A stretch of 21,055 nt of DNA from a virus: positions 1-21,055 of IMG/VR virus record IMGVR_UViG_3300049783_001738; one strand, written 5' to 3'. A model generated the notes under the pieces. The model made no database searches. It saw only the letters and a program-made list of their open reading frames with translations, and was not told the origin of the DNA. Positions 6,002 to 21,055 of the stretch are shown here, piece after piece; position 1 is the stretch's first letter, and each line of letters opens with the position of its first letter. The position numbers were made by a program, and so were the translations under genes.

Positions 6002-6004
6002 AAT

Positions 6005-8814: not shown

Positions 8815-9092
8815 CCCACAACGTTTGAACTTTTACGAATAAGTGCCGCTAATTGATTCACTTTATTTTTTGTTTGCTCAAATTGATTAGAGCGAGATTG
8901 TTTTTTGATTTTCGCTTGATAGAGTGCAATGTTATTTTTTGAGACTAAACCCAATTGAGTTTTAAGTTGCTCTAAATTAAACAAACGATTTGCGATTATC
9001 TCAATAGTTTCTATTGAGCTTTGACTTGTTTTACGTGCTTGATTTTCACGTAATATTTTTTTAATTGGGGCTTCTATCCGTTCAGCTTCCAT
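8808..9092 (-). CDS. Small basic early phage protein, unknown
   Basis: This 94-residue protein is lysine/glutamine-rich and almost wholly helical, with coiled-coil-like stretches (about residues 25-85). It has a good ribosome site, AGAGGAA, 7 nt before ATG 9092. It is the first gene after an intra-operon terminator, and its ribosome site is the right arm of an inverted repeat that encloses that terminator. Expression therefore appears to be controlled at both levels. No family was recognised. Confidence 0.6.
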   Translation of the reverse strand: MEAERIEAPIKKILRENQARKTSQSSIETIEIIANRLFNLEQLKTQLGLVSKNNIALYQAKIKKQSRSNQFEQTKNKVNQLAALIRKSSNVVGC

Positions 9093-9099
9093 TCATCTA

Positions 9100-9169
9100 T
9101 TCCTCTGTAAACTAATTCCTCATGAAAAAAAAGGTGGGCTTGTAATGAGCGCCCCCACCAACAGAGGAA
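9100..9169 (-). promoter_or_regulatory. Candidate RNA switch: inverted repeat pairing with the ribosome site
   Basis: On the minus-strand transcript, TTCCTCTGT (from 9169-9161) is perfectly complementary over 9 nt to ACAGAGGAA (9108-9100), which contains the ribosome site of the 94-residue gene. The arms enclose the terminator hairpin at 9125-9159. Pairing would hide the ribosome site. Confidence 0.45.
9125..9159 (-). terminator. Intra-operon terminator after the Cox/Cro-like gene
   Basis: On the minus strand GGTGGG pairs with CCCACC around a loop of about 15 nt, followed at once by eight T. It lies between the regulator gene (stop 9201) and the first replication-operon gene (start 9092). 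No separate promoter is apparent in the 30 bp that follow, so downstream genes would need read-through or antitermination. Confidence 0.7.
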
Positions 9170-9200
9170 ATTAAAATTAAAATTAATATTTTTTATTCTT

Positions 9201-9428
9201 TTACGACCAACACACTTTGTTATGTTCGTCTTTCTTTTCTTCAGCCTCGATGGTTAACATCAATAACGCCGTCATGTTGATGAACTTTTTACCCTTTTCC
9301 TTAGGCTGAATAAAAGGAAGTATTTTGTTATCAATTTCATCGCGTATCACTTTCGGGGTTTCCCCTACGCGCTTGGCATATTCAGCAACAGATAGCATTG
9401 GCTCTGGCACTTGGATGATTACATTCAT
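9201..9428 (-). CDS. Cox/Cro-like phage regulator (excisionase-type helix-turn-helix)
   Basis: This is a 75-residue protein when started at ATG 9428, which has AAAGAAAGG about 9 nt upstream; an upstream in-frame ATG at 9473 has no ribosome site. Residues 10-40 (MLSVAEYAKRVGETPKVIRD) form a MerR/Cox-like helix-turn-helix followed by a wing (FIQPKEKGKKFINM). This is the layout of Cox proteins of P2-like phages, which repress the lysogenic promoter and help excision. It is divergent from the repressor gene and heads the early operon, as expected for the lytic side of the switch. The family call is by pattern. Confidence 0.72.
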   Translation of the reverse strand: MNVIIQVPEPMLSVAEYAKRVGETPKVIRDEIDNKILPFIQPKEKGKKFINMTALLMLTIEAEEKKDEHNKVCWS

Positions 9429-9465
9429 GATCAACGCCTTTCTTTTAAAGCTCTTTCGGGTTAAA

Positions 9466-9494
9466 TTGTGCAATGCTGTTTAGCATTGTCACAA
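9466..9494. promoter_or_regulatory. Second-class palindrome in the lysogeny switch
   Basis: CAATGCT (9471-9477) and AGCATTG (9482-9488) form a perfect 7-bp inverted repeat around GTTT. TTGTG and CACAA outside extend it with one extra base on the right. It differs from the ACTCCA/TGGAGT sites and sits nearer the Cox-like gene, so it may be a Cox site or cover the early promoter (weak minus-strand TTGTGA and CACAAT boxes flank it). Confidence 0.45.
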
Positions 9495-9506
9495 AAGACA
9501 CTAAAT

Positions 9507-9522
9507 ACTCCACATATGGAGT
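9507..9522. promoter_or_regulatory. Repressor operator candidate O1
   Basis: ACTCCA-CATA-TGGAGT is a 6-bp perfect inverted repeat in the divergent intergenic region between the Cox-like and repressor genes. It matches O2 at 14 of 16 positions. Confidence 0.65.
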
Positions 9523-9538
9523 GTGTGAGCACATAGTA

Positions 9539-9554
9539 ATTCCATATATGGAGT
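9539..9554. promoter_or_regulatory. Repressor operator candidate O2 overlapping the repressor start
   Basis: ATTCCATATATGGAGT lies 32 bp (about three helical turns) from O1. Its core TCCATATATGGA is a perfect 12-bp palindrome. It includes the preferred repressor ATG at 9548, so binding would also block repressor synthesis. Confidence 0.6.
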
Positions 9555-10219
9555 ATTGTCAATTGGAATATAAAGATAAAATCAAAATTTTAAGAGAATC
9601 TTTAAGTTATACTCAGAAGCAATTTGCAGAATTAACCTCTATTCCATTGAGTACATTGAATAAAATAGAGGGTGGCTTTTCCAATGTAGGGATTTCTGTT
9701 ATTGATAAAATAATTCAGACCCCATCACTTAAAGAACATATTTTGTGGTTAATGACTGGTGACTCTCCTTTAAATCAAATTGAAAACTCCACTTCTGGAG
9801 ATCACATCCAACTTCCGTTTTATGAAGTGGCAGCAAGTGCAGGAAATGGCACATTAGTCGAAAATGAAGAACTGGCTCACAACATTAGCTTTCGTGCAGA
9901 ATGGTTAAGAAAAGACTTAGGGGTAAATCCTAATGATATTTTTGTCATGCTTACCAAAGGCGACAGCATGGACCCAACCATCAAAGAAGATGCGTTGATA
10001 ATGGTGGATAAAAACACACAAAAACATATAAACGGTATTTATGTACTGCGCTTTAATGGCGAACTACTGGTTAAACGTCTGCAGTTCACCATGTCGAATA
10101 CCATTAAAGTAATTTCAGACAATAAAGCCTACGACACCGAAGAAATTAACCCAGAACAATTAACCGGCACCGACCTAGAAATAATAGGCCGCGTTGTTTG
10201 GTCAGGACAAAGGATGTAA
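9548..10219 (+). CDS. CI/LexA-type phage repressor with S24 autoprotease
   Basis: This is a 223-residue protein from ATG 9548. The N-terminal helix-turn-helix (about residues 10-45) contains [20 protein letters not shown]. The C-terminal S24 peptidase domain has a cleavage site at Ala98-Gly99 (AASAGNG), nucleophile Ser140 in KGDSMDP and general base Lys176 in ELLVKRLQ. It keeps the prophage silent and should be inactivated by RecA-stimulated self-cleavage. An in-frame ATG at 9473 would add 25 residues, but these read through O1. Neither start has a clear ribosome site, so a leaderless transcript is possible. It shares a transcript with the DUF4062 gene. Confidence 0.88.
9786..9801. promoter_or_regulatory. 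Operator-like site O3 inside the repressor gene
   Basis: ACTCCA-CTTC-TGGAGA matches O1 at 11 of 12 arm positions. It lies inside the repressor coding sequence about 250 bp from O1/O2, which could allow looping or roadblock autoregulation. Confidence 0.4.
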
Positions 10220-10224
10220 AAGTT

Positions 10225-11250
10225 ATGGATAAACGTTATCAAGTATTTGTAAGCTCTACCTACGCCGATTTAAAAGATGAAAGACAAAAGGTTTTGCAAA
10301 CATTGATGGAAATGGACTGCATTCCATCAGGCATGGAATTTTTTCCAGCAACAGACCAAGAGCAATGGCCGTTCATAAAAAAAATTATAGATGATTGTGA
10401 TTACTACTTGTTAATTATAGGTGGTCGATATGGCTCTACGGCTGATGAAGGAATTAGCTATACAGAGAAAGAATACGATTACGCAGTAGAAAAAGGGCTT
10501 AATGTCATCGCGTTTATTCATGACTCACCAGAAGATATACCGCGAGTGAAAGCAGATTTAGATCATACATTAATTGATAAATTAGAAGCTTTTAAAGCAA
10601 AGGTTAAAACAGGACGGTTAGTTAGATTTTGGAATCAAGCGAATGAGTTACCTGGTATTGTAGCCCTTAGCTTATCTAAAGCTTTTAAACATTTCCCTGC
10701 TGTTGGTTGGATAAGAGCTGATACGACCTCTTCAATTAAAACATTAACGGAACTAATTGAATTACGTAAAAAAAATGATGAGCTAGAATTAAAGCTACAA
10801 GGATTATCTGCAACAGATAAAGGTATTCATATACTTGACGAAGTTGCAAATCAAGCTGATTTATGCGGTTTATCTGAAACAGTTACACTAACATCAACTT
10901 TGGCCATTGATAATACTAAATTCCCTATAGAAATTACTTTATCTGATGTATTTAATATCATTGCTCCCGAAATCGCTAACCTCATAGAAGAAAATCAAGT
11001 TCAAGGTTATTTAATCAATTGCCTTCGAAGTAAAATTATAGATACTTACACTGAATTATTGTCACATAGAGACCGTATAGAGATTCCATTCAACTTTTTA
11101 TTTAGGTGTCGAATTCATTTTATGGCGCTAAAGCTAATGACCATAAAAACCGAATATGAGGATGGAACAACCAAAAATTATTGGCAATTAACTGAGAGTG
11201 GAACGGTAGAAATGATAAAAAAAATGGCTTTTACCCATGAAGGTAAATAA
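10225..11250 (+). CDS. DUF4062-domain protein, candidate prophage-encoded defence factor
   Basis: This is a 341-residue protein from ATG 10225, with AAAGGA about 10 nt upstream; an earlier frame start inside the repressor gene has less support. Residues 3-110 match the DUF4062 pattern: [17 protein letters not shown], then [20 protein letters not shown], then [12 protein letters not shown], then YTEKEYDYA. This fold is TIR/SEFIR-like and is common at the N-terminus of bacterial defence effectors. After a coiled segment (about 178-200) comes a C-terminal domain of about 140 residues that I do not recognise. It follows the repressor by 5 nt and is thus probably expressed in lysogens. A superinfection-exclusion or abortive role is inferred. 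Confidence 0.75.
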
Positions 11251-11253
11251 ATT

Positions 11254-11300
11254 TTACAGTGACTAAATGACATTACAAACTACTAACTAAGTCGCTGTAA
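11254..11300. repeat. 11-bp inverted repeat between convergent genes
   Basis: TTACAGTGACT (11254-11264) pairs with AGTCGCTGTAA (11290-11300) with one wobble, between the 3' ends of the DUF4062 gene and the small antisense gene. It has no proper T-run, so it is only a weak terminator candidate. Confidence 0.35.
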
Positions 11301-11535
11301 TCAAAATCCCGCCAGTGTATATAGTTTGTGATTGTAAAACGACATTAGCCATAGAACAAACGCTATCTAATTTATTAATTTCAGTTGGTGTTAAGAACTC
11401 TTTACCACCGAAGATAACATGAACTTTATTTTCTTTAACTGTTGTTTCTATTTGAATATTTTCAATGGCGTTTTCTGCATAAAGCTTAATAAAGTCCATA
11501 ACGAGTTTGTGTGCATAAGGCTGATTTTGAGACAT
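11287..11535 (-). CDS. Small unknown gene opposed to the lysogeny operon
   Basis: This is an 82-residue protein from ATG 11535 (weak site TGGAAAT upstream); a longer frame from 11607 would overlap the integrase start. The N-terminal helix (about residues 1-28) is followed by a strand-rich part (NIQIETTVKENKVHVIFGG) and a C-terminal helix-strand end. It faces the DUF4062 gene and diverges from the integrase. A LexA-like box lies 14 bp before its start codon. This is the position where some P2-like phages keep SOS-controlled antirepressors, but the sequence does not clearly match a known one. It is probably real, of unknown function. Confidence 0.55.
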   Translation of the reverse strand: MSQNQPYAHKLVMDFIKLYAENAIENIQIETTVKENKVHVIFGGKEFLTPTEINKLDSVCSMANVVLQSQTIYTGGILITAT

Positions 11536-11548
11536 AATATTTCCAGTA

Positions 11549-11564
11549 CTGTTTATTTGTACAT
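11549..11564. promoter_or_regulatory. LexA-box-like site between the small gene and the integrase
   Basis: CTGT-N8-ACAT matches the gammaproteobacterial LexA core CTGT-N8-ACAG at 7 of 8 positions, with an AT-rich spacer and TA in front. It is located in a 65-bp divergent promoter region. Confidence 0.4.
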
Positions 11565-11600
11565 ATTTGATCATAGTTAGAAAGAAAGGTAAATAATTAT

Positions 11601-12572
11601 ATGGCAATTCGTAAACAATCTAACGGCAAATATTTAGTAGAGCTTTACCCACAAGGACGAAGCGGTAAACGTGTGCGTAAGACCTTTGCTACTCAAAGCG
11701 AGGCTAAACGTTTTGAGCTATTCAATATTAATGAAGCAGAACAAAAACCATGGTTACCCGCTAAAGACGATAATCGCCGCTTAAGTGAGTTGATTGACGT
11801 TTGGTTTAATTTGCATGGCCAAGCCCTTAACGATGGTATAAAACGTAAAAGTAAGCTGCAAGCGATGGCGCTAATGATGGGAAACCCCATCGCCCGTAAT
11901 TTTAAAACAGCTGACTTTTCAAAATATCGTCAACAGCGTTTAGAAACCGTTTCTATTAAAACGGTTAACAATGACCAAACGTATTTAAATGCGTTATTCA
12001 ACGAACTTAATCGCCTGGGCGAATGGTCATATGAAAACCCGATTAATGGTTTACGCGCTTTAAAATATCAACAACCTGAAATGGGCTTTTTAACGCCTGA
12101 TGATATTCCGCTGTTATTTGATGAATTACAGAAAAGCCGTAACGCTGATGTATATTTAGTTGCCAAGATTTGTATTTCTACGGGTTGTCGTTGGAGTGAA
12201 GCAGAAAGATTAACCGGAACACAAATTACCCCACACCGTTTAACGTTTACCAAAACGAAAGGCAATAAACACCGAAGCATTCCCATTAGTGAAGCACTCT
12301 ATAATGAGATCACTAAAAAAGATGGCCGCATTTTTTCAAATTGTATAAAAGCATTTGATATGGCATTAAAACGGACGGCGGTTCGACTCCCTAAAGGGCA
12401 ATCAACCCATGTATTAAGACACACTTTTGCTAGTCACTTTATGATTAAAGGCGGTAATATATTAGTACTGCAACAGATACTAGGTCATAGCAGCATTACC
12501 GATACAATGAAGTATTCGCACTTCTCACCAACGCATTTAGAGGATGCTATAAGGCTTAACCCCCTTTCTTAA
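11601..12572 (+). CDS. int: Tyrosine integrase of the prophage (P2-like)
   Basis: This is a 323-residue protein, typical for P2-like phage integrases. Residues 1-45 form a short arm-binding domain (RKQSNGKYLVELYPQGR), residues about 58-155 the core-binding helices, and residues about 165-320 the catalytic domain. That domain has Arg197 (TGCRWSE), Lys220, His270-x-x-Arg273 (HVLRHTFASH), His296 (LGHSS) and nucleophile Tyr305 (MKYSHF), so all six catalytic positions are present. AAAGG lies about 11 nt before ATG 11601. It ends at 12,572, about 110 bp before the attachment site, and its stop codon overlaps the first of two direct repeats that look like its arm sites. Confidence 0.9.
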   Translation: MAIRKQSNGKYLVELYPQGRSGKRVRKTFATQSEAKRFELFNINEAEQKPWLPAKDDNRRLSELIDVWFNLHGQALNDGIKRKSKLQAMALMMGNPIARNFKTADFSKYRQQRLETVSIKTVNNDQTYLNALFNELNRLGEWSYENPINGLRALKYQQPEMGFLTPDDIPLLFDELQKSRNADVYLVAKICISTGCRWSEAERLTGTQITPHRLTFTKTKGNKHRSIPISEALYNEITKKDGRIFSNCIKAFDMALKRTAVRLPKGQSTHVLRHTFASHFMIKGGNILVLQQILGHSSITDTMKYSHFSPTHLEDAIRLNPLS

Positions 12573-12592
12573 AGTGGCGACAAAGTGGCGAC
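12571..12592 (+). repeat. Tandem AAAGTGGCGAC pair, probable integrase arm sites
   Basis: AAAGTGGCGAC occurs twice without a gap (12571-12581 and 12582-12592), the first covering the last bases of the integrase stop codon. An 11-bp period beside the attachment site is typical of arm-type sites. The following 12,593-12,640 is strongly T/G-rich with repeated GTCGTT and has no gene. Confidence 0.55.
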
Positions 12593-12684
12593 AGTCGTTG
12601 TTTTTTGTTGGTTTTGGTCGTTTTACGTTGTTCAGTAAGTCATTGATAGTTAAGCTGTAGCCCTTATAGAACGGGGTTATTAAA

Positions 12685-12710
12685 GGGTTCGATTCCCCCC
12701 CGCTCCACCA
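12685..12710 (+). other. Attachment site: 3' end of a tRNA or tmRNA gene
   Basis: GGG-TTCGATT-CCCCC is a T-arm and CCGCTCC-ACCA an acceptor end with encoded CCA. The 5' side of the T-stem is degraded (AAGGG), and no matching GGGGCGG/GGAGCGG acceptor strand or other arms lie upstream. It is therefore a remnant, not a gene. The ending GCTCCACCA is the one found on tmRNA and tRNA-Ala, giving a possible G3-U70 pair; ssrA is the better guess because it is a frequent integration target. It is the junction between the two elements. Confidence 0.75.
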
Positions 12711-12721
12711 AAATAAGAATT

Positions 12722-12750
12722 AAAGACGCTTTTTAGCGTCTTTTTTTTCG
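12722..12750 (+). terminator. Rho-independent terminator behind the tRNA/tmRNA end
   Basis: A perfect 9-bp stem AAAGACGCT / AGCGTCTTT with a TTTT loop is followed by further T residues. It is probably the original terminator of the target RNA gene carried at the element 2 junction. The 12,751-12,885 stretch that follows has no gene and carries the arm-like repeats before the integrase. Confidence 0.85.
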
Positions 12751-12845
12751 TCTTAAACTCAACAAATAGTAGCCTACAGTCGTATTTAGTGGTTATTAAC
12801 GCTTTTTAATAATTAATGACAATCAACTTTTTTAGGGGTACTGTT

Positions 12846-12882
12846 AAGGGGTTCAGAGTTAATTAATATAAGTGAACCCCCT
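12846..12882. repeat. Direct and inverted AAGGGGTTCA motifs before the island integrase
   Basis: AAGGGGTTCA lies at 12846-12855 and the inverted form TGAACCCC(C)T at 12873-12882, ending 3 bp before the integrase ATG. A partial copy (TTAGGGGTAC) is nearby at about 12,833. The same motif is repeated five times at 20,790-20,847. These are probably integrase arm sites, and the inverted copy could also let the integrase repress its own gene. Confidence 0.6.
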
Positions 12883-12885
12883 AAA

Positions 12886-14124
12886 ATGGCTAAAATAACT
12901 AAACCTTTAACAAATACCGAAGTAAAACAGGCTAGAGCGAAAGAAAAGCCTTATAAGCTATTTGATGGCGCTGGCTTAGTGTTAAAGGTAAGAGTAAACG
13001 GCTCAAAATCTTGGTTGTTTATGTATAAGAAGCCATTCGTTACAAAACGTGCTGAATTAGTTTTTGGCATGTACCCGAGTATTACCCTAGCTGAAGCAAG
13101 AGAGTTAAGGACAACAGCAAACGAGTTATTGTCTAAGGATATTGATCCTAAAGAGCATAAAGACGAACTTAACCGCCAACAGCAAGAAACGCTAAGTAAT
13201 ACTTTTGAACAAGTAGCTGCTAATTGGTTTCAAGTTAAGAAAACAGAAATTAGCGCTGATTATGCTAAAGATTTATGGCGATCATTAGAATTACATATAT
13301 TTCCAGCGTTAGGCAAACACCCTATTAGCAAAATAACAGCTCCCCTAACAATTGATGTTATCAAACCCATAGCGGCAAAGGGTAGCCTTGAAACAGTTAA
13401 ACGACTCACACAGCGCCTAAATGAAATAATGAACTATGCGGTTAATACAGGGCTTATTCATGCTAGCCCATTAACAGGGATAAAAGCGGCATTTAAAAAA
13501 CCTGAAAAACATAATATGCCTACCCTTACCCCTGATCAATTACCTGAATTAATGAAAACGATTAGTTACGCCAGCATAAAAATAGTTACTCGCTGTTTAA
13601 TTGAATGGCAACTTCATACGATGGTTAGACCAAGTGAGGCAGCTGGCGCTAAATGGTCAGAAATAGATTTAGATAATAACCAATGGCTTATTCCTGCCGA
13701 ACGCATGAAAAAGAAACGTGATCACACTGTACCGCTAACAAAACAAACAATAGAACTATTAGAGCGGTTACAACCTATAAGCGGTCACAGAGAATACTTA
13801 TTTCCTGCCGATAGAGATCCAAAGAAACACGCTAACGAATCAACCGCAAACGCAGCACTAAAGCGTATGGGCTATCATAAAAAACTTGTTGCTCATGGTA
13901 TGCGAGCATTAGCCAGTACCACATTAAACGAACAAGGCTTTGACGGGGATGTAATTGAAGCGGCTCTAGCACATGTAGATAAAAACGAAGTTAGACGCGC
14001 TTATAACCGTGCTGAATATTTAGAGAGTAGACGTAAGTTGATGTACTGGTGGTCAGAGCATATTGAACAGGCTCAATCAGGGAAATGTAATAAATCTAAT
14101 AAGGGCTTAAAAGCCGTAGGTTAA
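12886..14124 (+). CDS. P4-family tyrosine integrase of the island
   Basis: This 412-residue protein is the standard length for P4-type integrases that target tRNA/tmRNA 3' ends. The N-terminal DUF4102-type arm-binding domain covers about residues 5-90 (KLFDGAGLVLKVRVNGSKSW, then YPSITLAEAR), the core-binding domain about 105-205, and the catalytic domain about 212-385. Catalytic residues are Arg248 (MVRPSEAAG), a lysine in MKKKRDH (274-280), His337-x-x-Arg340 (HGMRALAST), His363 and Tyr373. All are present, so it appears active. The ATG at 12886 has no ribosome site and is preceded by CCCCCT, so translation may be weak or leaderless. Confidence 0.92.
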   Translation: MAKITKPLTNTEVKQARAKEKPYKLFDGAGLVLKVRVNGSKSWLFMYKKPFVTKRAELVFGMYPSITLAEARELRTTANELLSKDIDPKEHKDELNRQQQETLSNTFEQVAANWFQVKKTEISADYAKDLWRSLELHIFPALGKHPISKITAPLTIDVIKPIAAKGSLETVKRLTQRLNEIMNYAVNTGLIHASPLTGIKAAFKKPEKHNMPTLTPDQLPELMKTISYASIKIVTRCLIEWQLHTMVRPSEAAGAKWSEIDLDNNQWLIPAERMKKKRDHTVPLTKQTIELLERLQPISGHREYLFPADRDPKKHANESTANAALKRMGYHKKLVAHGMRALASTTLNEQGFDGDVIEAALAHVDKNEVRRAYNRAEYLESRRKLMYWWSEHIEQAQSGKCNKSNKGLKAVG

Positions 14125-14167
14125 ATTAGTTGGGATAGCTTAAAACTGATCATTTTAAGTGAAAGGT

Positions 14168-14206
14168 ACTACCTCAGTACTTTCCCAATTCATTTATTGA
14201 GGTAGT
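14168..14206. promoter_or_regulatory. Inverted repeat before the 405-residue gene
   Basis: ACTACCTCA (14168-14176) and TGAGGTAGT (14198-14206) form a perfect 9-bp inverted repeat with a 21-nt loop, 15 bp before the ATG. It may be an operator or a hairpin in the leader. Confidence 0.4.
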
Positions 14207-14221
14207 GACAGAGGTTATCAC

Positions 14222-15439
14222 ATGAATAAATATCAAAAAGGATTTACACCAGAAGAAGCAGCTTTAATTGCTGTAAGTCTAGAATCGTATCGTACTTTAG
14301 ATAACGCAGAAAAACACATAGATGACGAACTTTGTTTAGGACATGTCACTCGCGTAACTGGTGAACAACTCAATGAAGCTATGGATATTATAAAAGCATT
14401 AAAAGAAGAAACTTGGCGGGCTCATGAATATGAACAGAGTAGCTCAAATCAAAGTAGCTGCTTAGAAATCTATATACCTATGTACAATCAAAAGTTTAAT
14501 GGTGTTTTCGATACTGATTATTCACAACTTACTAAAGCTAGTTTGGCTAAATGGTTTGAAGAAGTAGGCGAAGTAGACATAAGTAAGAAGTTTAAGGAGC
14601 CCGAAAAAGTTATTGCTATCAATCCTTTTAAGCAAGCCTATACAGCTGAACACGCAGCACTAATTTCTGTAGGATTAAATACTTACGACTCAATTGATTT
14701 AGCAATTGAAAGCTCTAGCTACCAAAGTGAGCTAATTGGTCAAGCACAACGGGAAGTTGAACGAGGCGGTGAATATACAGACTTTGAAGTCGATCCATTA
14801 CTTGAAGATGATTCTATTTCTAATGCTATAAATATTAAAGGAGCATTAATTGATGAAATAAAACTAGCTTACAAGTGGGAGGAGTTTAATTTAACTGCCC
14901 AAGACTATGCTGAAATTGGCATAAATCCAAATACTATAACTCCAAATTCCTACACTGATATTATTATTCATCAAGAAGCACTTAATGAAGATAAAAAAAT
15001 TAATTATTTTTCAACTCTTGTAACTAAGGAAAGTGTGGCTACTTGGCTATGGAATAATGGCCAATACAACTATGCGACAAATGTTCTTCCTAATATTGAA
15101 AGTCTACTCAAGGACAAACAGGTTGCTGAATCTAAAAGCACACAGCAATGGAATACTACAGCACAAAACACCAATAATAAGGAGCAGCCAACTAAAACAA
15201 CAAGAACTTCTGATTCAAGTTTAATTGATTCTCTAGGTATTATGGCTTGGATGCTGTCTAAGAAAATTGGTACATTTCAACATGGTAATAAACCAAATGC
15301 TAAACAGATAAAAGATCAAGTGGAAAATATCATCAATGAATTGAAATTAGATAACGAGGATAATAAATTAGAAGTGAGCAATTTAAATAAAGATATTTCA
15401 ACCGCTTTGAGGCAGCTAGAAGGAAGGTTTAAGCTTTAA
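14222..15439 (+). CDS. Unknown island protein with duplicated N-terminal module
   Basis: This is a 405-residue soluble protein. Two related modules start at about residues 7 and 138: GFTPEEAALIAVSLESYRTL and AYTAEHAALISVGLNTYDSI, each followed by an acidic region and a strand/helix part ending in SLAKWF and SVATWL. A polar linker (about 300-330) leads to a C-terminal helical domain (LGIMAWMLSKKI, then NKPNAKQIKDQV). This resembles a C-terminal domain that I recall from accessory proteins of other mobile elements, without known function. GAGG lies 8 nt before the ATG. It sits between the integrase and AlpA, where CP4-like elements keep regulatory genes. Confidence 0.7.
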   Translation: MNKYQKGFTPEEAALIAVSLESYRTLDNAEKHIDDELCLGHVTRVTGEQLNEAMDIIKALKEETWRAHEYEQSSSNQSSCLEIYIPMYNQKFNGVFDTDYSQLTKASLAKWFEEVGEVDISKKFKEPEKVIAINPFKQAYTAEHAALISVGLNTYDSIDLAIESSSYQSELIGQAQREVERGGEYTDFEVDPLLEDDSISNAINIKGALIDEIKLAYKWEEFNLTAQDYAEIGINPNTITPNSYTDIIIHQEALNEDKKINYFSTLVTKESVATWLWNNGQYNYATNVLPNIESLLKDKQVAESKSTQQWNTTAQNTNNKEQPTKTTRTSDSSLIDSLGIMAWMLSKKIGTFQHGNKPNAKQIKDQVENIINELKLDNEDNKLEVSNLNKDISTALRQLEGRFKL

Positions 15440-15443
15440 ACAT

Positions 15444-15480
15444 TTGGCTAGCCAAAGTCAGCCAAACAACTTTTTGGCTG
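15444..15480. promoter_or_regulatory. Cluster of TTGGCT/AGCCAA inverted motifs upstream of alpA-like gene
   Basis: TTGGCTAGCCAA (15444-15455) is a perfect 12-bp palindrome. CAGCCAAA and TTTGGCTG (15459-15466, 15473-15480) form an 8-bp hairpin with loop CAACTT. Four half-sites in 37 bp before an AlpA-type gene suggest an operator region. It could also act as a weak terminator of the preceding gene, but it has no T-run after it. Confidence 0.5.
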
Positions 15481-15544
15481 GCCACCATTCCTATTAGGTT
15501 TATCTATATTCTTTAAAAACTCAAACAACACAGAGAGTTTTTTT

Positions 15545-15808
15545 ATGAATACATATCAAGTTAAACAACAGCCAAGAATTTTGCGCCGCCCTGAAGTGCT
15601 AGAACTTACAGGATGGTCAAAAAGTACTTTATACAATCGTATTGAATCACAGCAATTCGTTAAATCCATATCTCTTGGCGAAAGAAGTATAGGGTTCATT
15701 TCTTATGAAGTTGATGCTGTTATTAAAGCCATGTTCGAAGAACAAACACCAGAACAAATCAAACAGCTTGTTTCAGAGCTAATTCAACAACGCAAAAAAA
15801 CGGCATAG
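15545..15808 (+). CDS. AlpA-family DNA-binding regulator
   Basis: This is an 87-residue protein. Residues 12-60 carry the AlpA (MerR-like excisionase fold) pattern: ILRRPEVLELTGWSKSTLYN as the helix-turn-helix, then a wing with SLGERSIGF and SYEVDAVI. The C-terminal tail is a glutamine/lysine-rich helix. In CP4-57 AlpA activates integrase/excisionase expression and so triggers excision; the same role is likely here. AGAGAG precedes the ATG inside a small AAAACTC...GAGTTTT hairpin. It is 8 nt upstream of the next gene, so the two form an operon. Confidence 0.85.
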   Translation: MNTYQVKQQPRILRRPEVLELTGWSKSTLYNRIESQQFVKSISLGERSIGFISYEVDAVIKAMFEEQTPEQIKQLVSELIQQRKKTA

Positions 15809-15816
15809 GGGGCAAC

Positions 15817-16251
15817 ATGGATAATATATTATTTACCGCCCCTGATGGCGCACTACCTGAAATAACCAGCCCTGCTTATGAGTTGCTTTTAATTCTATCT
15901 GATACCAGTAAACACGCTAGAGATCACCTGTGTAATGAACTAGGTGGTGGCTTTAGAGCCTATCTACAACAGTTAACAGGTGAGTATTATCAGCACTGGC
16001 TCATTCATACTGAACAAGGTGAGTTTAACAATAAAAAGCAAACATTCTATTATCTAGATGAGCGGCACTTCTCATGTGACTGGGAGCAAGACAAAGATGC
16101 GCGAACCATTGCCCGAAAGCAATATAAAGACCGTTCATACTATGGTACTAAAAACGCTGTGAAACGCCTTGAACAAGCGAAGCAAGAAAAAGCCGAGGCT
16201 GACGAGGAGTATAAGCAGCGAATAGAAAATAAAAAGCCCACAGAGGATTAA
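15817..16251 (+). CDS. Unknown small protein in the alpA operon
   Basis: This is a 144-residue protein. Residues 1-80 are mixed helix/strand with conserved-looking aromatic and histidine residues (YQHWLIHTEQGEF, DERHFSCDW). Residues 92-144 are highly charged and likely form a coiled helix (RLEQAKQEKAEADEEYKQRI). A strong AGGGGG site precedes ATG 15817, and the gene follows alpA by 8 nt. It ends where the repeat-rich gap starts, just before the Rep gene, so a role in replication control or as a Rep partner is conceivable. No family was recognised. Confidence 0.65.
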   Translation: MDNILFTAPDGALPEITSPAYELLLILSDTSKHARDHLCNELGGGFRAYLQQLTGEYYQHWLIHTEQGEFNNKKQTFYYLDERHFSCDWEQDKDARTIARKQYKDRSYYGTKNAVKRLEQAKQEKAEADEEYKQRIENKKPTED

Positions 16252-16552
16252 CAAAGTAGGCTTTCGTTTAAACTGGCTAGTGGGTAAGTTTTGCGGCTAA
16301 ACCACTAGCCTACAACAAGAGTATAACTAACTTAACAGCTTTTCAAAAGTTAGTAGTTACATACCTGTTAAACACTACCCTGTATAAATTGATTCTTATT
16401 AACCGCTATTTACAGGTTTCTTACCCTTAAAATAATGGTGTTATACAATCAAGACAATATAACTACTAGTATTAGACAGGTAAGTAATAACTAACTTTGA
16501 ACTAGGTAATTAATAATATCCTTTAGCGTTATCTTAGTTATTAAACTATCTA
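16252..16552. other. Repeat-rich non-coding region, candidate replication origin of the island
   Basis: There is no gene here. It holds a perfect 9-bp hairpin GGCTAGTGG / CCACTAGCC (about 16,276-16,311) and an 8-bp inverted repeat ACTAACTT / AAGTTAGT (about 16,327-16,353). It also holds TAACTAACTT as a direct repeat (about 16,325 and 16,488) and ACAGGT in both orientations (about 16,363, 16,409 and 16,474). It lies directly before an HUH Rep gene, which is where a rolling-circle origin would be expected. The origin assignment is inference. Confidence 0.45.
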
Positions 16553-17113
16553 ATGGCATATATCACCAAAGACAAAGCAATAACAATAAACGGCCAAACG
16601 TGGTGGGTGAACTCTCATGGAAGTGGGTTAATTACGCACGCCATAAAATCAATGATTAACCAAGTTAATGCCATGTTAAGCCACCATAGTAAAATTCATA
16701 TAATACGGTTTGATCTGAGAGTTTATGAATACACCGAAAATAACGGCATTATTACGGCATTTAATCGCAGATTACATAAATGGCTTAAGCGTAAATACAA
16801 TTTAAAGCGTGTCGGTTTTATATGGTGTAGAGAGTTGGAAACAGCGAAACAACAGCACTATCACTATGCGTTAATGATCGATGGTCACAAGGTTAACTAT
16901 CCTGATGAAGTAAACAAAAAGGTCAAAGAGATATGGCGGCAATTAGACGGCTCTGAATACTTTCCTAAGAACTGCTATTACAACATTAAAAGAAATGATT
17001 ACGAAACGATTCAGGCGGCTATCTGGCGCATATCTTATTTAGCTAAAGCGCGAGGTAAAGGTTATAAACCAGATCAAACTAAGAACTATGGAACAAGTAG
17101 GATTAAGGCTTAA
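16553..17113 (+). CDS. HUH Rep-like protein, YagK/YfjJ C-terminal (inovirus Gp2) family
   Basis: This is a 186-residue protein. Motif 1 is IIRFDLRVY (50-58), motif 2 is the HUH-type HYHYAL with His102 and His104, and motif 3 is ISYLAKARGKG with Tyr162 and Lys165, all in the order of single-tyrosine rolling-circle initiators. The family occurs in inoviruses and in CP4-57/CP4-6-type elements (YfjJ, YagK). It may start replication of the excised island. The ATG has no clear ribosome site and follows the repeat-rich gap. A short N-terminus of about 45 residues before motif 1 is usual for this group. Confidence 0.8.
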   Translation: MAYITKDKAITINGQTWWVNSHGSGLITHAIKSMINQVNAMLSHHSKIHIIRFDLRVYEYTENNGIITAFNRRLHKWLKRKYNLKRVGFIWCRELETAKQQHYHYALMIDGHKVNYPDEVNKKVKEIWRQLDGSEYFPKNCYYNIKRNDYETIQAAIWRISYLAKARGKGYKPDQTKNYGTSRIKA

Positions 17114-17177
17114 AAATAATGACAATAAGCCGTAAATACCGAAACAATACGGGTTATATATCTAGAATAAAAATATC

Positions 17178-17255
17178 TATAATGGTAGACTCCGCGACAA
17201 TTAATAGGCTATAACATTAATGTTAGACTAATTTAAAATCATCCACGGAGGATAT
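17178..17255 (+). promoter_or_regulatory. Promoter and palindromic operator of the Panacea pair
   Basis: A consensus -10 box TATAAT lies at 17178-17183 with only weak -35 similarity. A perfect 14-bp palindrome TAACATTAATGTTA follows at 17212-17225, then a strong GGAGG ribosome site at 17247-17251, 4 nt before ATG 17256. Palindrome placement fits autoregulation of a toxin-antitoxin operon. Confidence 0.55.
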
Positions 17256-17690
17256 ATGGCCAATTTACAAGATGTTGCTAAGTGCTTCCTTTGTTTGGAT
17301 GAAGCTAATAGCGGAGACGGTATATCAAATCTCAAGTTACAAAAATTAGTTTACTACGCTCAAGGTTTTTATAGCGCTTTATTTGACAAAGCCCTTTTCA
17401 GCAACTCAATTTCAGCATGGGCACACGGTCCTGTAGTAGATGAATTGTATCAAAATTATAAATGTTATGGACGTGATCACATACCAGTACCAACAGACTT
17501 TATGATTGACTCGTTAACTAAAGATGAATACGAATTAATAGAAGAAGTTTTTGATATATACGGGCAATACTCTGCTTGGAAATTACGGAATATGACTCAC
17601 GAAGAATCTCCTTGGCTTGCTCATGAGGCTCAAGCAGATGTAATTCCTCTATCTGAGATAACAGAGTTCTTCAAAAATAAAATTAATTGA
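17256..17690 (+). CDS. Panacea-domain antitoxin (DUF4065/GepA-SocA type)
   Basis: This is a 144-residue protein. The Panacea pattern covers most of it: ISNLKLQKLVYYAQGF at residues 23-38, AWAHGPVVDELY at 54-65, and SAWKLRNMTHEESPW at 106-120. Panacea proteins are antitoxins that pair with many unrelated toxins. It has a strong ribosome site and its own palindromic promoter. The next gene starts 2 nt after its stop, which suits a two-gene toxin-antitoxin operon with the antitoxin first. The family assignment is strong; neutralising activity here is inferred. Confidence 0.85.
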   Translation: MANLQDVAKCFLCLDEANSGDGISNLKLQKLVYYAQGFYSALFDKALFSNSISAWAHGPVVDELYQNYKCYGRDHIPVPTDFMIDSLTKDEYELIEEVFDIYGQYSAWKLRNMTHEESPWLAHEAQADVIPLSEITEFFKNKIN

Positions 17691-17692
17691 TC

Positions 17693-18100
17693 ATGGGCCG
17701 AATAAAAAAGGATACAGGCAAACAAGGAAAAAGCGTAACAGTCCAACAGCCTATTGATTACAACTCCAAAGTCCCTGTATTTTCACTCGAAAAAATACAA
17801 CAAGGGAAATATTGTTTATCCAGTCTAGATAAAGATCATAAATCAATGTTTGCCGACTCTATATTTAGGAGAAAGGCACTAACTTGGAAAGAAATAACAC
17901 AAGCACCTAAACATGGGCTTGGAACGGAAAAAATCCCAAAAAAATCTATTAAAGCTCCTACTCCTAAGTTTATTACTGAGGATTTAGAAGAATACTTGGT
18001 CTTTCGATATAACGGAAAAGCACCTATGGTCGGCTATAGGCAAAGAGACGTATTTTTTGTTTTATGGTTTGATCATGACTTTACGCTGTATAAGCACTAA
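17693..18100 (+). CDS. Candidate toxin partner of the Panacea antitoxin
   Basis: This is a 135-residue protein from ATG 17693; an in-frame TTG at 17687 would overlap the antitoxin stop. The N-terminus is basic and probably flexible (GRIKKDTGKQGKS). The core runs through FSLEKIQ, FADSIFRRKALTWKEI, PKHGLGTEKIP, then a strand-rich end (EEYLVFRYNGKAPMVGYR, VFFVLWFDHDFTLYKH). The closing motif ending in aspartate-rich FTLY(K/D)H belongs to a widespread uncharacterised family that I recall beside Panacea genes. No membrane segment or ToxSAS motif is seen. The toxin role is inferred from operon position. Confidence 0.6.
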   Translation: MGRIKKDTGKQGKSVTVQQPIDYNSKVPVFSLEKIQQGKYCLSSLDKDHKSMFADSIFRRKALTWKEITQAPKHGLGTEKIPKKSIKAPTPKFITEDLEEYLVFRYNGKAPMVGYRQRDVFFVLWFDHDFTLYKH

Positions 18101-18161
18101 AAATATAGATCAATTATCGTAGATTCAATAAATACTTTTTTTTCGTACAAGAAATTACCAC

Positions 18162-18583
18162 ATGAATTTAAAACCACTATTAATACTAATGACTATTTTC
18201 CTTTCTTTTAGTGTTAGCGCAAAAGATAAAAGTTATGGTGACATTAAAGTATTAGAAGTAACTAGCATCTACGATGGTGATACATTCAGAGCAAATATTG
18301 AAGGTTATCCAGCAAACATATGTCTATTCGTATAAATGGCATTGATACACCTGAATTAAGAGGTAAATGTGCCAAAGATAAGCAACTAGCAAGGAAAGCA
18401 AAACAATTCACTGTAGAGCATTTGAGAGCCGCTAAAAGCATTACCTTGAAGAATATTAAACGTGGAAAGTATTTTAGATTGATAGCAGATGTTTATATAG
18501 ATGGTATCAGCTTAGGTGATCTATTAATTAGATATGAGCATGCTGTAAAGTACATAGGAAAAACCAAGAAACAATGGTGTTAA
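18162..18583 (+). pseudogene. Secreted SNase-family thermonuclease, frameshifted
   Basis: ATG 18162 opens a frame with signal peptide MNLKPLLILMTIFLSFSVSA, then VTSIYDGDTFR, and stops at about 18,336. From about 18,314 the second frame carries the remainder: SIRINGIDTPELRGKC, GKYFRLIADVYIDG and a closing KKQWC. Together they hold the staphylococcal-nuclease active-site motifs DGDT, R-x-x-GIDTPE and the later KYFR arginine, split across two frames. The gap at YPAN/KHMSIR lacks a few residues usual there, so a short deletion of a length not divisible by three is likely. A fragment from ATG 18320 lacks the first catalytic motif. As read, no active secreted nuclease can be made. Confidence 0.75.
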
Positions 18584-18588
18584 CTCAT

Positions 18589-19095
18589 TTATTTTTCATA
18601 GGTGTTTTTAATAACTCTTTGGCCTCTAGTTTTATTAATGGTTTTCATGTTTTTCTTATAAATGAGACCACCAAAGACAACTAGCCATAAACCTATGGGA
18701 AGCTGATTGTGAGGAGGATTCTCCATAATAACGGCTCTAAATAGAAAAAATAGCCCTACAGTTAGCATAATAGTTATGAGTAATATTGCTATACATTCAC
18801 CACCAGTTAAGTTCCACGCTTTAATTGTAAATTGCGATAGTCCATCTTCAATAAATTCACTTACCTTGAAAAGCAATGGTATGCCGATTACAAAGCAAAT
18901 AGCGATAAGTAATAATGGTATAAAAGGAGTGATTGAATCCCAAGAGTTATAAATAAGATAACCTATTCCAACTATGGCTGTAATTATAATGGTACCGATA
19001 ATTGCTAGAACACCCCACCCAATAATATTGCGCCAATAATTCAATATTATTACCGCTAATATGACTCCTAAAGCAATTTCAATTATAAGCATCAT
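18589..19095 (-). CDS. Multi-span membrane protein, unknown
   Basis: This 168-residue protein is very hydrophobic, with about five membrane segments: residues 2-20, 25-48, 56-75, 103-122 and 132-146. It ends in a basic cytoplasmic tail (KKNMKTINKTRGQRVIKN). The start has AAAGGA upstream; ATG 19092 directly after it is equally possible. It converges on the broken nuclease gene with 5 nt between the stops and is the only minus-strand gene of the island, so it is probably an independent cargo gene. A membrane immunity or small effector role cannot be excluded, but nothing specific is visible. Confidence 0.6.
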   Translation of the reverse strand: MMLIIEIALGVILAVIILNYWRNIIGWGVLAIIGTIIITAIVGIGYLIYNSWDSITPFIPLLLIAICFVIGIPLLFKVSEFIEDGLSQFTIKAWNLTGGECIAILLITIMLTVGLFFLFRAVIMENPPHNQLPIGLWLVVFGGLIYKKNMKTINKTRGQRVIKNTYEK

Positions 19096-19378
19096 AAATC
19101 CTTTGTATTATTATGAGTTGGACTAAAAATTATGGTAAACAGTTTCAACTTTACAAAAATCATCTAAGAATAGGGAGGTGAATTTTTTTATCATTAGAAA
19201 CTAGATACTAATTAGAAGTTTATAATACGACATCAAACTATAAAATGCTGGTGATTAATCATAAACATAGGCTATTAGTGGGTTATTTAAGGGCTCTTAA
19301 TTATTTATTATGTAAATACCACGCTAGGTTAAATATTATCTACTACACTTAAAGTTCACTCAGCAAGGAACGCTAACG

Positions 19379-19600
19379 ATGCCAAATAATCAAAGACCGC
19401 CTTACATACTCGTTAAAACTTGGTTAGATATTTATTACAGCCAACAAACACCAGAACACAAAGAGGCTCAAGTAGTTGTTGAAGCCTTGATACTGAAAAA
19501 CTTCTATTCAGTTTATGAAGCGGAGATGTATCTTTTTCAATTAGAACGACCTAAAGCTGCGCAACAAATTACTGCGCACTACGCAAATGCGCAATCCTAA
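19379..19600 (+). CDS. Small unknown island protein
   Basis: This 73-residue, helix-rich protein has repeated tyrosine and glutamine (LVKTWLDIYYSQQTPEHKEA) and no membrane segment or recognised domain. AAGGA lies about 11 nt before ATG 19379. It stands alone between a 283-bp AT-rich gap (19,096-19,378, in which I see no gene) and a short gap with a minus-strand hairpin. Compact helical proteins of this size are common regulators in satellites, but no helix-turn-helix is evident. Confidence 0.5.
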   Translation: MPNNQRPPYILVKTWLDIYYSQQTPEHKEAQVVVEALILKNFYSVYEAEMYLFQLERPKAAQQITAHYANAQS

Positions 19601-19609
19601 TTTTTAAGC

Positions 19610-19645
19610 AAAAAAAACGCGCTTACTTGTTGCCAAGAAACGCGT
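19610..19645 (-). terminator. Terminator-like hairpin on the minus strand
   Basis: On the minus strand ACGCG pairs with CGCGT, with an inner CTTG-GCAA-CAAG stem, followed by eight T. No minus-strand gene is visible to the right of it, so it may stop antisense or incoming transcription. On the plus strand it has no T-run. Confidence 0.4.
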
Positions 19646-19788
19646 ATAAACATGAAACACTAAGGGAATAACATAACTATTAAGTGAGAGTGTCAATTAT
19701 CAAATTAGTTCCATTAATTTAAGTCATTAATTAAAAATATTTCTTATAACCTGATGTTAAGTTAAGCCTGTTTTTCGCACAAGATAAA

Positions 19789-20067
19789 ATGATACAATGT
19801 AAACTTATCATTACAGTGATGGCTTTTAACATGAAAACAGCTAACAAAACACCTACCAGTAAATACATGAGTGGCGATATTAGGCATTTAATTAACCAAG
19901 CCATTCAGGATGAATTGCTTAAACTACCAAGCACACTAGCAGAAATTAAAGACCCTATTCAAAGGTTAAACTTCTTAACGAAACTTATGCCTTTTGTATG
20001 TGCGCCTATTAAACAAGTTGGCGTTATTACCGCACGTAGAGAAGTGGGCGAAGAAAATATTTCTTAA
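19789..20067 (+). CDS. Small unknown protein preceding the zinc-ribbon gene
   Basis: This is a 92-residue frame from ATG 19789; ATG 19819 and ATG 19831 (MKTANKTPTS) are alternative starts, and none has a clear ribosome site. The body is helical: DIRHLINQAIQDELLKLPST, then LAEIKDPIQRLNFLTKLMPF, then a proline-marked tail. The pattern DELLKLPSTL followed by a DPxxRLxFLxKLxPF helix is one I have seen in small phage and island proteins of unknown function. It lies 25 nt (20 nt to the earlier ATG) before the zinc-ribbon gene, with which it is probably co-transcribed. Confidence 0.6.
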   Translation: MIQCKLIITVMAFNMKTANKTPTSKYMSGDIRHLINQAIQDELLKLPSTLAEIKDPIQRLNFLTKLMPFVCAPIKQVGVITARREVGEENIS

Positions 20068-20092
20068 CTTTAACTTCTTGGAGTAAATGACA

Positions 20093-20713
20093 ATGCCAAA
20101 AGGCCATCATTACGGCAGAACGCAAACAAGGGCTTATACTGGTGAGTATCATCGCTTATATGCCAACATATTTAAGTCTTTACTCACTACCCCACTAGGT
20201 AGTTATTCAATCAATTCAGAATATCTTAGTGATAATCATCAACAGCTAACCTTAAAAGAAAATGAAAATGGCGTTCGTTATGTAACATTCACTATAAACG
20301 AGAAGCCGCACCAAATAGCCTTAAAGCTCGATAATCGGAGCGCAAGCAGTAAACTATATATCACTTGCCCATACTGCCAAAAACAACGCCAGAGCCTTTA
20401 TGCGGTTAAATACGCCTATGGTTGCCGTAAATGTATCGGCTTACACTACGCCAGCCAAAGTGAGCGCCCACAAGAAAGACTTATGAGGCGCATTAGAAAT
20501 CTTAGAAAAGAGTTATGGGGTTATGATTGGCCTGACGCTAACAATATGTTTGAACAGGTTGTTGACTGGCCCAAGCCTAAAGCGATGCGTTGGAAAACAT
20601 TTGAACAAAAGCGAAATAAGATAATCGAGTTAGAAAAGAGATATTGGCCTATGGCTATTACTCAAATGAAAACAACTTTTGGTGATCACTTTATGGCTGA
20701 ACATAATAATTAA
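20093..20713 (+). CDS. Zinc-ribbon protein of mobile elements
   Basis: This is a 206-residue protein from ATG 20093, which has GGAG 9 nt upstream; ATG 20087 is only 3 nt from that site. A four-cysteine zinc ribbon lies at Cys92/Cys95 (CPYC) and Cys111/Cys114 (CRKC), followed by GLHYASQSE and a basic arginine-rich helix (ERLMRRIRNLRKEL). The arrangement CPxC...CxxC-GLxYxSQ is frequent in unnamed phage and plasmid proteins and suggests nucleic-acid binding. It is the last gene of the island. No function is known to me. Confidence 0.65.
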   Translation: MPKGHHYGRTQTRAYTGEYHRLYANIFKSLLTTPLGSYSINSEYLSDNHQQLTLKENENGVRYVTFTINEKPHQIALKLDNRSASSKLYITCPYCQKQRQSLYAVKYAYGCRKCIGLHYASQSERPQERLMRRIRNLRKELWGYDWPDANNMFEQVVDWPKPKAMRWKTFEQKRNKIIELEKRYWPMAITQMKTTFGDHFMAEHNN

Positions 20714-20924
20714 AGTTTTTTCCGAGGTCATTACCCGTTAAAAAACAGTTAAGTTAAATCGTCCCATTTTAATGGTGACAAAAACAATTAAGGGGTTCAT
20801 CAAGGGGTTCATCAAGGGGTTCATCAAGGGGTTCATCAAGGGGTTCAAGTAGAGCAACTAAAATAATAAACAATTAATATCAACAAGTTAAAACACCAAT
20901 TCAGATGACCCCCGCCCACCAAAA
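20714..20924. other. Non-coding right end of the island with candidate att site
   Basis: There is no gene here. It contains one CGTCCCATTT copy (20760-20769), the five-copy arm-like array (20790-20847), an AT-rich stretch, and at 20901-20924 the sequence TTC...GACCCCCGCCCACCAAAA-type end. This resembles the left junction (TTC, CCCCCGC, CCACCA then A-run) with one missing T and changes in the T-loop part. It is a tentative right attachment site. Confidence 0.35.
20790..20847 (+). repeat. Five tandem AAGGGGTTCA copies with 12-bp period
   Basis: AAGGGGTTCA occurs at 20790, 20802, 20814, 20826 and 20838, separated by TC. The copies are identical. The same 10-mer lies before the island integrase at 12846, so these are probably integrase or excisionase arm sites. 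A period slightly above one helical turn makes successive sites rotate slowly around the helix. Confidence 0.7.
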
Positions 20925-20968
20925 AAAACATTTGTAACTCAATAGGTTACAGAAGAATAATTTATCGA

Positions 20969-20985
20969 CGTCCCATTTACGTCCC
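20969..20985 (+). repeat. CGTCCC direct repeats outside or at the island end
   Basis: CGTCCC occurs at 20969 and 20980 (11-bp period), and CGTCCCATTT is shared with 20760-20769. These may be further recombinase sites, in which case the true island end may lie further right than 20,924. Confidence 0.35.
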
Positions 20986-21022
20986 TAGCGTATATGGGAA
21001 CACATAAAAAATAGAGAAAAAT

Positions 21023-21048
21023 AAAAGGATGCTTCGGCATCCTTTTTT
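21023..21048 (+). terminator. Rho-independent terminator near the window end
   Basis: The stem AAAAGGATGC / GCATCCTTTT with a TTCG tetraloop is followed by T residues. It is a textbook terminator. The gene it serves is not obvious; it may belong to the chromosome flank or to a gene on the other side. Between 20,925 and 21,022 I see no gene. Confidence 0.8.
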
Positions 21049-21055
21049 ATTGTCT

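What the first reader, a model, noticed from the sequence alone, without database searches (positions are those of the whole stretch)
17178..18100. Panacea antitoxin with a candidate non-standard toxin
The antitoxin domain is clear, with a TATAAT box, a 14-bp palindrome and a strong ribosome site ahead. The 135-residue partner has no ToxSAS, membrane or known nuclease motif, and ends in a recurring FTLYKH signature. It may represent a toxin class without a known mechanism.
Basis: partly seen in the sequence, partly recalled or inferred. Interest (0 to 1): 0.55.

Follow-up and report, generated by a model that had tools for sequence, protein, structure and literature searches.

The report
Panacea antitoxin with RelE-fold toxin
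A small mobile DNA element carries a two-gene toxin-antitoxin module; the 'toxin without a known mechanism' is predicted to have the well-known RelE fold, whose members mostly stop protein synthesis, so this looks like an unlabelled branch of a known kind rather than a new class.

Summary
The pair is real. Gene one (17256-17690) is a stand-alone Panacea antitoxin domain (Pfam E 3e-20). Gene two (17693-18100, 135 aa) belongs to a widespread unnamed family. Searched with gene two alone, Panacea lay just upstream on the same strand in 49 of 52 bacterial and 53 of 53 viral loci. Shine-Dalgarno-like sites precede panA in 44 of 53 but the toxin in 4 of 43, which fits coupled translation. The toxin model (pLDDT 91) resembles RelE: best match T. 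thermophilus RelE, Z 8.3; 49 of the 50 entries listed are RelE/ParE-type by titles and recall. Profile comparison finds no sequence kinship with YoeB, ParE or Gp49, so the link rests on fold. A readthrough model of antitoxin plus toxin from a relative is confident as one body (pTM 0.86). Most likely: a type II module whose basic toxin inhibits translation, on an integrase-AlpA-Rep element beside a corticovirus-like provirus. Toxicity and RNA cleavage are inferred, not shown. ParE and MqsR toxins with Panacea are already in print. New member of a known kind; modest interest.

The parts
17178..17183 (+). TATAAT hexamer; weak promoter candidate
   Evidence: not accepted by the promoter scan, 16 exact copies on both strands of the window
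17212..17225 (+). 14-bp perfect palindrome TAACATTAATGTTA; possible operator, not seen in 6 relatives' leaders
17247..17251 (+). Shine-Dalgarno GGAGG of the antitoxin gene
17256..17690 (+). panA: stand-alone Panacea (SocA-like) antitoxin, 144 aa, acidic (pI 4.6)
   Evidence: Pfam PF13274 E 3e-20; PHROG 1281 E 4e-45; pI
17693..18100 (+). panT: 135-aa basic (pI 9.7) protein with predicted RelE fold; start 2 nt after the panA stop, without its own Shine-Dalgarno site
   Evidence: PHROG 8366 E 4e-41; model pLDDT 91; structure matches; pI and start

Best explanation
A type II toxin-antitoxin module. One mRNA encodes panA first, with a strong ribosome site, and panT second, started by translational coupling, so antitoxin is made in excess. 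PanA, a single Panacea domain, binds PanT directly and blocks it. PanT folds like RelE, YoeB and HigB; when PanA is lost (element loss, phage infection or proteolysis) the freed basic toxin most likely enters the ribosomal A site and cuts mRNA, stopping translation. The benefit to the carrier is retention of the mobile element and possibly abortion of phage infection. Shown: operon linkage, conservation, predicted fold. Inferred: toxicity, coupling, direct binding, RNA cleavage, trigger, benefit.
For: Pair conserved in loci from Gammaproteobacteria, Cyanobacteria, Acidobacteria, Chloroflexi and Bacteroidetes (titles): Panacea upstream, same strand, in 49 of 52 genome loci and 53 of 53 viral loci found with the toxin alone; antitoxin first in all 102. 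In 54 of 61 non-redundant toxins (those full-length with a Panacea hit) the spacing is -35 to 50 nt, median 2, by my choice of starts. SD-like tetramer before panA in 44 of 53, before panT in 4 of 43 with an ATG start. PanA and PanT distances correlate (r 0.52; highest of 2000 permutations 0.20), as any linked genes may. Toxin model pLDDT 91.1, pTM 0.78, order strand-helix-helix-four strands; T. thermophilus RelE Z 8.3, rmsd 2.8, 86 residues; 49 of 50 listed entries RelE/ParE/HigB/YoeB/YafQ proteins or Cami1, by titles and recall; 48 of 50 for the second model. Readthrough model of PanA+PanT of L011 (toxin 70% identical to the window's): pLDDT 94.0, pTM 0.86. E79, R105, D127, Y133 in 53 of 53, H135 52, H74 51. 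Acidic PanA, basic PanT. NetFlax reports that stand-alone Panacea can neutralise directly (PMC10440598, section 10).
Against: No profile similarity to YoeB, ParE or Gp49: 0.1-2.2%, the unrelated Panacea profile gives 0.1-0.3%. The control YoeB-ParE gives 94.7%, but YoeB-Gp49 3.7% and ParE-Gp49 8.7%, so the test is blunt. Foldseek finds nothing in PDB with E under 0.3 for the toxin, and VIA only re-aligns chains that Foldseek chose. The tool warns that a best Z of 7-8 is common for unmatched models; 8.3 is barely above. The arginine at position 111 (R in all 9 distant relatives aligned), which I equate by eye with RelE R61, is P (43) or A (10) in the 53 of the window's clade; H74, Y133 and H135 are not kept in those distant relatives and E79 in only 1 of the 4 with Panacea. 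RelE-fold ParE proteins poison gyrase instead. No toxicity data; 8 of 25 PanATs chosen by Kurata et al. had a PanT not toxic in E. coli.
Confidence: 0.57

Rival explanations
1. PanT is a ParE-like gyrase poison: same fold, but it stops DNA replication instead of translation.
For: ParE and PrpT structures are among the matches (Z 4.8-5.7); NetFlax states that the RelE/ParE fold serves both activities; Kurata et al. report ParE domains among Panacea partners. The RelE-R61-like arginine is missing in the clade.
Against: The top rows are RelE, HigB and YafQ chains (Z 6.6-8.3), though rows within 1 Z are tied; conservation of charged residues is more typical of enzymes (inference).
Confidence: 0.14
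2. PanT is a nuclease with another target (tRNA, rRNA or free RNA, independent of the ribosome) using its own residues H74, E79, R105, D127, Y133 and H135.
For: Residues conserved in 51-53 of 53, arrangement unlike the recalled RelE set; E79 and H135 recall the glutamate and histidine of YoeB (recalled).
Against: No coordinates were available to see whether these residues meet in space; most of them are not kept in distant relatives; fold matches are mainly to ribosome-dependent enzymes.
Confidence: 0.15
3. Type VI-like action as in SocAB: PanA delivers PanT to a protease instead of masking it.
For: PanA matches the SocA model weakly (55.9 bits, cut-off 190).
Against: Far below the SocA cut-off; Kurata et al. 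found ClpXP and Lon not necessary for neutralisation by the PanAs they tested; the confident joint model favours direct binding.
Confidence: 0.06
4. Not a toxin-antitoxin pair: two linked genes of another function, such as a phage-exclusion or regulatory complex in which PanT is not toxic alone.
For: No toxicity data; in P22-like phages the pair sits as an extra between structural and immunity or tail-spike genes; in L006 Panacea is frame-shifted while the toxin frame is open.
Against: Tight antitoxin-first operon, Panacea partner and RelE fold together; the toxin frame is broken or partial in L023, L024, L025, L048 and L059 while Panacea stays open, though assembly errors may explain some.
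Confidence: 0.08

Closest known systems
PanAT modules (Kurata et al. 2022, PMC8832971; parts 1-3 of 8 read, plus passages)
   Same: Panacea antitoxin, two-gene operon, mostly antitoxin first, varied partner toxins, among them MqsR-like (n = 90) and ParE domains, which already are RelE-type folds (MqsR by a cited title, ParE by recall)
   Different: Their ten characterised toxins are membrane peptides, toxSAS, Fic/Doc, a cyclase and MazF-like RNases; whether this toxin is one of their 88 clusters could not be checked (supplement closed)
NetFlax node D3 'AarT' of Acinetobacter guerrae (PMC10440598; outline, section 4 part 1, section 10, section 11 part 1, passages)
   Same: No HHpred hit, 'same fold as mRNA interferases', inhibits protein synthesis; the low node number suggests a Panacea partner (my inference). 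Our toxin domain matches the C-terminus of the PADLOC NsnC profile
   Different: AarT is paired with an AAA ATPase, ours with Panacea. The AAA link on our side is indirect: six loci with NsnC-type N-termini follow an ATPase, but none of the six carries our domain. 'mRNA interferase' may there mean MazF
RelE / HigB / YoeB / YafQ toxins
   Same: Predicted fold and size of the core
   Different: No sequence similarity by profile; a longer link (residues 83-99) between the first strand after the helices and the hairpin strands; different conserved polar residues; Panacea in place of RelB, HigA, YefM or DinJ
MAG6450 family (NCBIfam NF046006)
   Same: 49 of 53 aligned members match it weakly
   Different: Window toxin 29.1 bits, cut-off 40; no function stated by the model
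SocAB of Caulobacter
   Same: Panacea antitoxin
   Different: Type VI, ClpXP adaptor; the SocA model's cut-off is far from met

Membership tests
Panacea antitoxin (PF13274) | Pfam model over its gathering score | tested here: met
   73.6 bits against 25.7, E 3e-20, residues 28-120
PanAT / type II toxin-antitoxin system | Conserved two-gene operon, genes at most 100 nt apart, in two or more species (criteria of Kurata et al.) | tested here: met
   102 of 105 loci with both genes, Panacea upstream, same strand; 54 full-length pairs of 61 non-redundant toxins within -35 to 50 nt
PanAT / type II toxin-antitoxin system | Direct antitoxin-toxin complex | tested here: inconclusive
   Tethered readthrough model of L011, pTM 0.86; no coordinates, no experiment, tether may bias
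PanAT / type II toxin-antitoxin system | Toxicity relieved by the antitoxin | not testable with these tools
   needs expression assays
RelE/ParE superfamily | RelE fold | tested here: inconclusive
   Predicted: Z 8.3 to RelE 2khe, 49 of 50 listed rows of the superfamily by titles and recall, 48 of 50; but Foldseek E at best 0.32 and Z 7-8 is a usual best for unmatched models
RelE/ParE superfamily | Detectable sequence-profile kinship with YoeB, ParE or Gp49 families | tested here: not met
   No Pfam hit up to E 1 for the toxin; none of the 14 families matched by any of 53 relatives is of RelE type; hhalign 0.1-2.2%
RelE-type ribosome-dependent mRNA interferase | mRNA cleavage on the ribosome | not testable with these tools
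   needs toeprinting or RNA-seq
MAG6450 family (NF046006) | NCBIfam score over 40 bits | tested here: not met
   29.1 bits; 49 of 53 relatives match at E up to 1; of 10 genomes of relatives 6 had a match, 0 over the cut-off
SocA (type VI antitoxin, NF047745) | NCBIfam score over 190 bits | tested here: not met
   55.9 bits
NetFlax D3 / AarT | Homology to A. guerrae AarT | not tested
   sequence and accession not in the main text passages I saw; supplements closed

The most novel reading that the evidence does not exclude
The toxin family is a separate branch of the RelE fold with its own active site: the RelE-like arginine (position 111) has been exchanged for proline or alanine, while H74, E79, R105, D127, Y133 and H135 are fixed or nearly so in the clade, so it may cut a different RNA or with different chemistry. 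In addition this toxin domain changes partners, as Panacea does: Panacea in most loci, a small unnamed protein in five short relatives, and by the PADLOC profile a C-terminal place in NsnC proteins (no full-length case was seen here).
Probability: 0.25. Interest if true: 0.5.

Novelty: new member of a known kind. Interest (0 to 1): 0.28.

Why it matters
A family annotated 'hypothetical protein' in phages of Escherichia, Salmonella and Pseudomonas, whose Emek pair matches 82 of 5,426 E. coli genomes, gains a testable role. RelE-type partners of Panacea (MqsR, ParE) are already reported, so the gain is an assignment, not a new principle. If right, it offers a simple pair, one domain against one domain, for asking how Panacea blocks such different toxins.

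Tried and rejected
Rejected: ToxSAS, Fic, MazF, MqsR or membrane toxin (no Pfam match up to E 1 in the window toxin; none of these among the 14 families matched by 53 relatives; low hydropathy). Rejected as evidence: TATAAT and palindrome. A single-strand DNA fold of the leader is only slightly stable (z -1.98).

Led nowhere: PDB by sequence for toxin and Panacea (in 113 a designed helix bundle at E 9e-5 is taken as spurious); viral structure library (no match with E up to 0.001); first viral scan with the single protein (13 candidate stretches, none confirmed); hhalign to YoeB, ParE and Gp49; meaning of the PADLOC name NsnC (80 papers, 20 listed, none relevant; 3,385 papers, 5 listed, none with the name); MAG6450 (one paper, one table row seen).

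Left out before counts: start codons are by rule (last Met before the profile match), so some spacings are approximate; truncated toxins (L023, L025, L040, L048, L059, L060, L062) and near-identical copies were left out of alignment A3, and only loci of the two collection scans plus the window were used. Of 21 distinct in-frame pairs printed, 17 pairs went into (L098 in place of its copy L002; L056-L058 and L059 left out). L208 and L209 are the same places as L136 and L131; L206 and L207 are nearly identical, so the five short relatives are about four independent ones.

The 'AbrB/MazE-like' label in my notes for the small partner of the short relatives is by eye; Pfam does not support it (best DUF2080, E 0.0036).

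Full report
What is there. The window is an IMG/VR virus record of 21,055 bases without a host genome. Positions 17256-17690 encode a 144-aa stand-alone Panacea domain (Pfam PF13274, E 3e-20). The stop codon is followed after 2 nt by ATG 17693 of a 135-aa ORF ending FTLYKH. The antitoxin has GGAGG ahead; the toxin start has none.

A conserved pair. tblastn of the toxin found it in 12 of 50,697 phage records and 3 of 72,556 plasmid records, among them the Lederbergviruses Emek, E212 and phiv205-1, Pseudomonas phages, and a large Legionella plasmid. In Emek and E212 the pair lies between injection-protein genes and the immunity or tail-spike region. The Emek pair as a DNA query matched 82 of 5,426 E. 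coli genomes, 48 of them over at least 80% of the query. A profile search with the toxin only returned 52 bacterial loci and 53 viral loci. A Panacea ORF was found in 50 of 52 and 53 of 53; toxin and Panacea hits together, same strand, Panacea upstream, in 49 and 53. The misses are L040 and L062 (no Panacea) and L061 (no toxin-profile hit). L040 is a toxin with a shifted frame overlapping an ORF that looks TIR-like by eye. The loci are redundant: 114 toxin ORFs held at that point (window and annotated records included) reduced to 61 when copies over 90% identical in the last 100 residues were removed. In a separate sample of 299 Pseudomonadota genomes, 11 places matched the NsnC C-terminal region; 9 of these 11 had Panacea beside them, L131 and L136 did not. 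In 369 genomes of the class of G001, 6 matched the toxin profile at E up to 0.01, only 2 of them strongly, so the family is sparse.

Expression logic. In the 54 full-length pairs of the 61, spacing is -35 to 50 nt, median 2. SD-like tetramers precede panA in 44 of 53 and panT in 4 of 43. This fits coupled translation with antitoxin in excess (inference). The palindrome and TATAAT are not features of the six relatives' leaders read, apart from one distant TATAAT.

The toxin. It matches no Pfam family, MAG6450 below cut-off (49 of 53 relatives match weakly), PHROG 8366 of unknown function, and the C-terminal third of the PADLOC protein NsnC (E 2.6e-7; 52 of 53 relatives). AlphaFold2 on 53 rows gave pLDDT 91.1 and pTM 0.78. 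Foldseek against PDB ranked RelE/YoeB/HigB/YafQ chains on top but none with E below 0.3. VIA-align, which re-aligns Foldseek's candidates (425 chains), gave T. thermophilus RelE Z 8.3, rmsd 2.8 over 86 residues; 49 of the 50 entries listed are of the RelE/ParE/HigB/YoeB/YafQ type or Cami1, grouped by titles and recall; the exception is 7xbj. A second model with another target but overlapping rows repeated this, 48 of 50. Against it: hhalign with profiles of YoeB, ParE and Gp49 gives 0.1-2.2%, no clear gain over the unrelated Panacea profile (0.1-0.3%); the positive control YoeB-ParE gives 94.7% but the two with Gp49 only 3.7% and 8.7%. So fold likeness is supported by consistency, kinship by sequence is not shown.

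Active-site clues. In the 53 aligned members F30, W65, G77, E79, R105, D127, F130 and Y133 are invariant; H135 52, H74 51. Distant relatives: four with Panacea (L129, L133, L135, L137) and five short ones of about 97 aa (L131, L136, L206, L207, L210) with a small unnamed protein directly upstream instead. The short ones match the main profile at 97.3%. All nine carry arginine at position 111, where the window's clade has P (43) or A (10). By eye this arginine sits where RelE has R61 (recalled). W65 and R116 are kept in all nine, R105 in eight; H74, Y133 and H135 mostly are not, and the alignment at D127 is uncertain in the short ones. The clade therefore may use other residues than RelE.

Neutralisation. 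In some relatives panA and panT lie in one frame, separated by a single stop. Reading 17 such pairs through, with L011 (toxin 70% identical to the window's) as target and 38 unpaired rows, gave pLDDT 94.0 and pTM 0.86. NetFlax reports that stand-alone Panacea can neutralise directly and proposes Panacea as a sensor.

Setting. Upstream, 183-9473 on the minus strand is a corticovirus-like provirus: coat protein P2 domains (E 7e-24 and 2e-17), a GPA-type replication protein, a packaging ATPase. Then come a repressor and an integrase, and from 12886 a second integrase, AlpA, and a YagK/YfjJ-type Rep just before panAT. So the module sits on what looks like a small integrative element next to, or within, the viral record.

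Known or new. Panacea modules are known (PMC8832971; PMC10440598), including MqsR-like and ParE partners, and RelE/ParE is one of the folds NetFlax lists. Node D3 (AarT) is described as lacking HHpred hits, having the fold of mRNA interferases and blocking protein synthesis; our family may be the same, which I could not test. The verdict is a new, unlabelled member of a known kind: it probably works like a RelE-fold toxin under a Panacea antitoxin, and is not filed as a RelE or ParE family member.

Noticed in passing
window 183-9473: Corticovirus (PM2-like) provirus: major coat protein with P2_N and P2_C domains (3464-4315), GPA-type Rep (6602-8530), HerA-like packaging ATPase. 41 of 50,697 phage records match the coat protein, all Vibrio phages, at most 35.3% identity in the 10 rows listed.
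   Followed up: partly
window 12886-18583: Integrase, AlpA, YagK/G2P-type Rep, panAT and an SNase-like ORF look like a P4-type satellite or small integrative element beside the provirus; direct repeats of 18 nt or more in 9000-21055 gave no attachment-site pair.
   Followed up: partly
model of L011:3551-4399 (Panacea half, residues 1-122): Panacea aligns with chain B of 7yk3 (M. tuberculosis DarTG complex), Z 8.2, rmsd 3.2, 116 residues, 18% identity; not among Foldseek's 50 listed rows, not seen by sequence. If the chain is the DarG C-terminal domain (not checked), described in a cited title as a ssDNA mimic (reference list), Panacea may be a related inhibitor fold.
   Followed up: partly
L122-L127: NsnC-type proteins (325-347 aa) directly follow an ATPase ORF (only that of L122 was scanned: AAA_15, DUF3696). 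They lack our toxin domain but end in ...RIHFxWP...YIGPKITK-like strings that look RelE-like by eye.
   Followed up: no
L131, L136, L206, L207, L210: Short relatives of the toxin (about 97 aa) preceded by a small protein of unknown family instead of Panacea: a possible further toxin-antitoxin type.
   Followed up: partly
L040:3394-4294: ORF that looks TIR-like by eye, overlapping a frame-shifted toxin-domain ORF in a Bryobacterales assembly; perhaps a TIR-toxin arrangement or an assembly error.
   Followed up: no
window 20787-20847: Tandem array of a 12-bp unit (ATCAAGGGGTTC), about five copies.
   Followed up: no
window 17173-17229: Two 19-nt direct repeats, 79% alike, 38 nt apart in the panA leader; could be operator half-sites or chance.
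   Followed up: no
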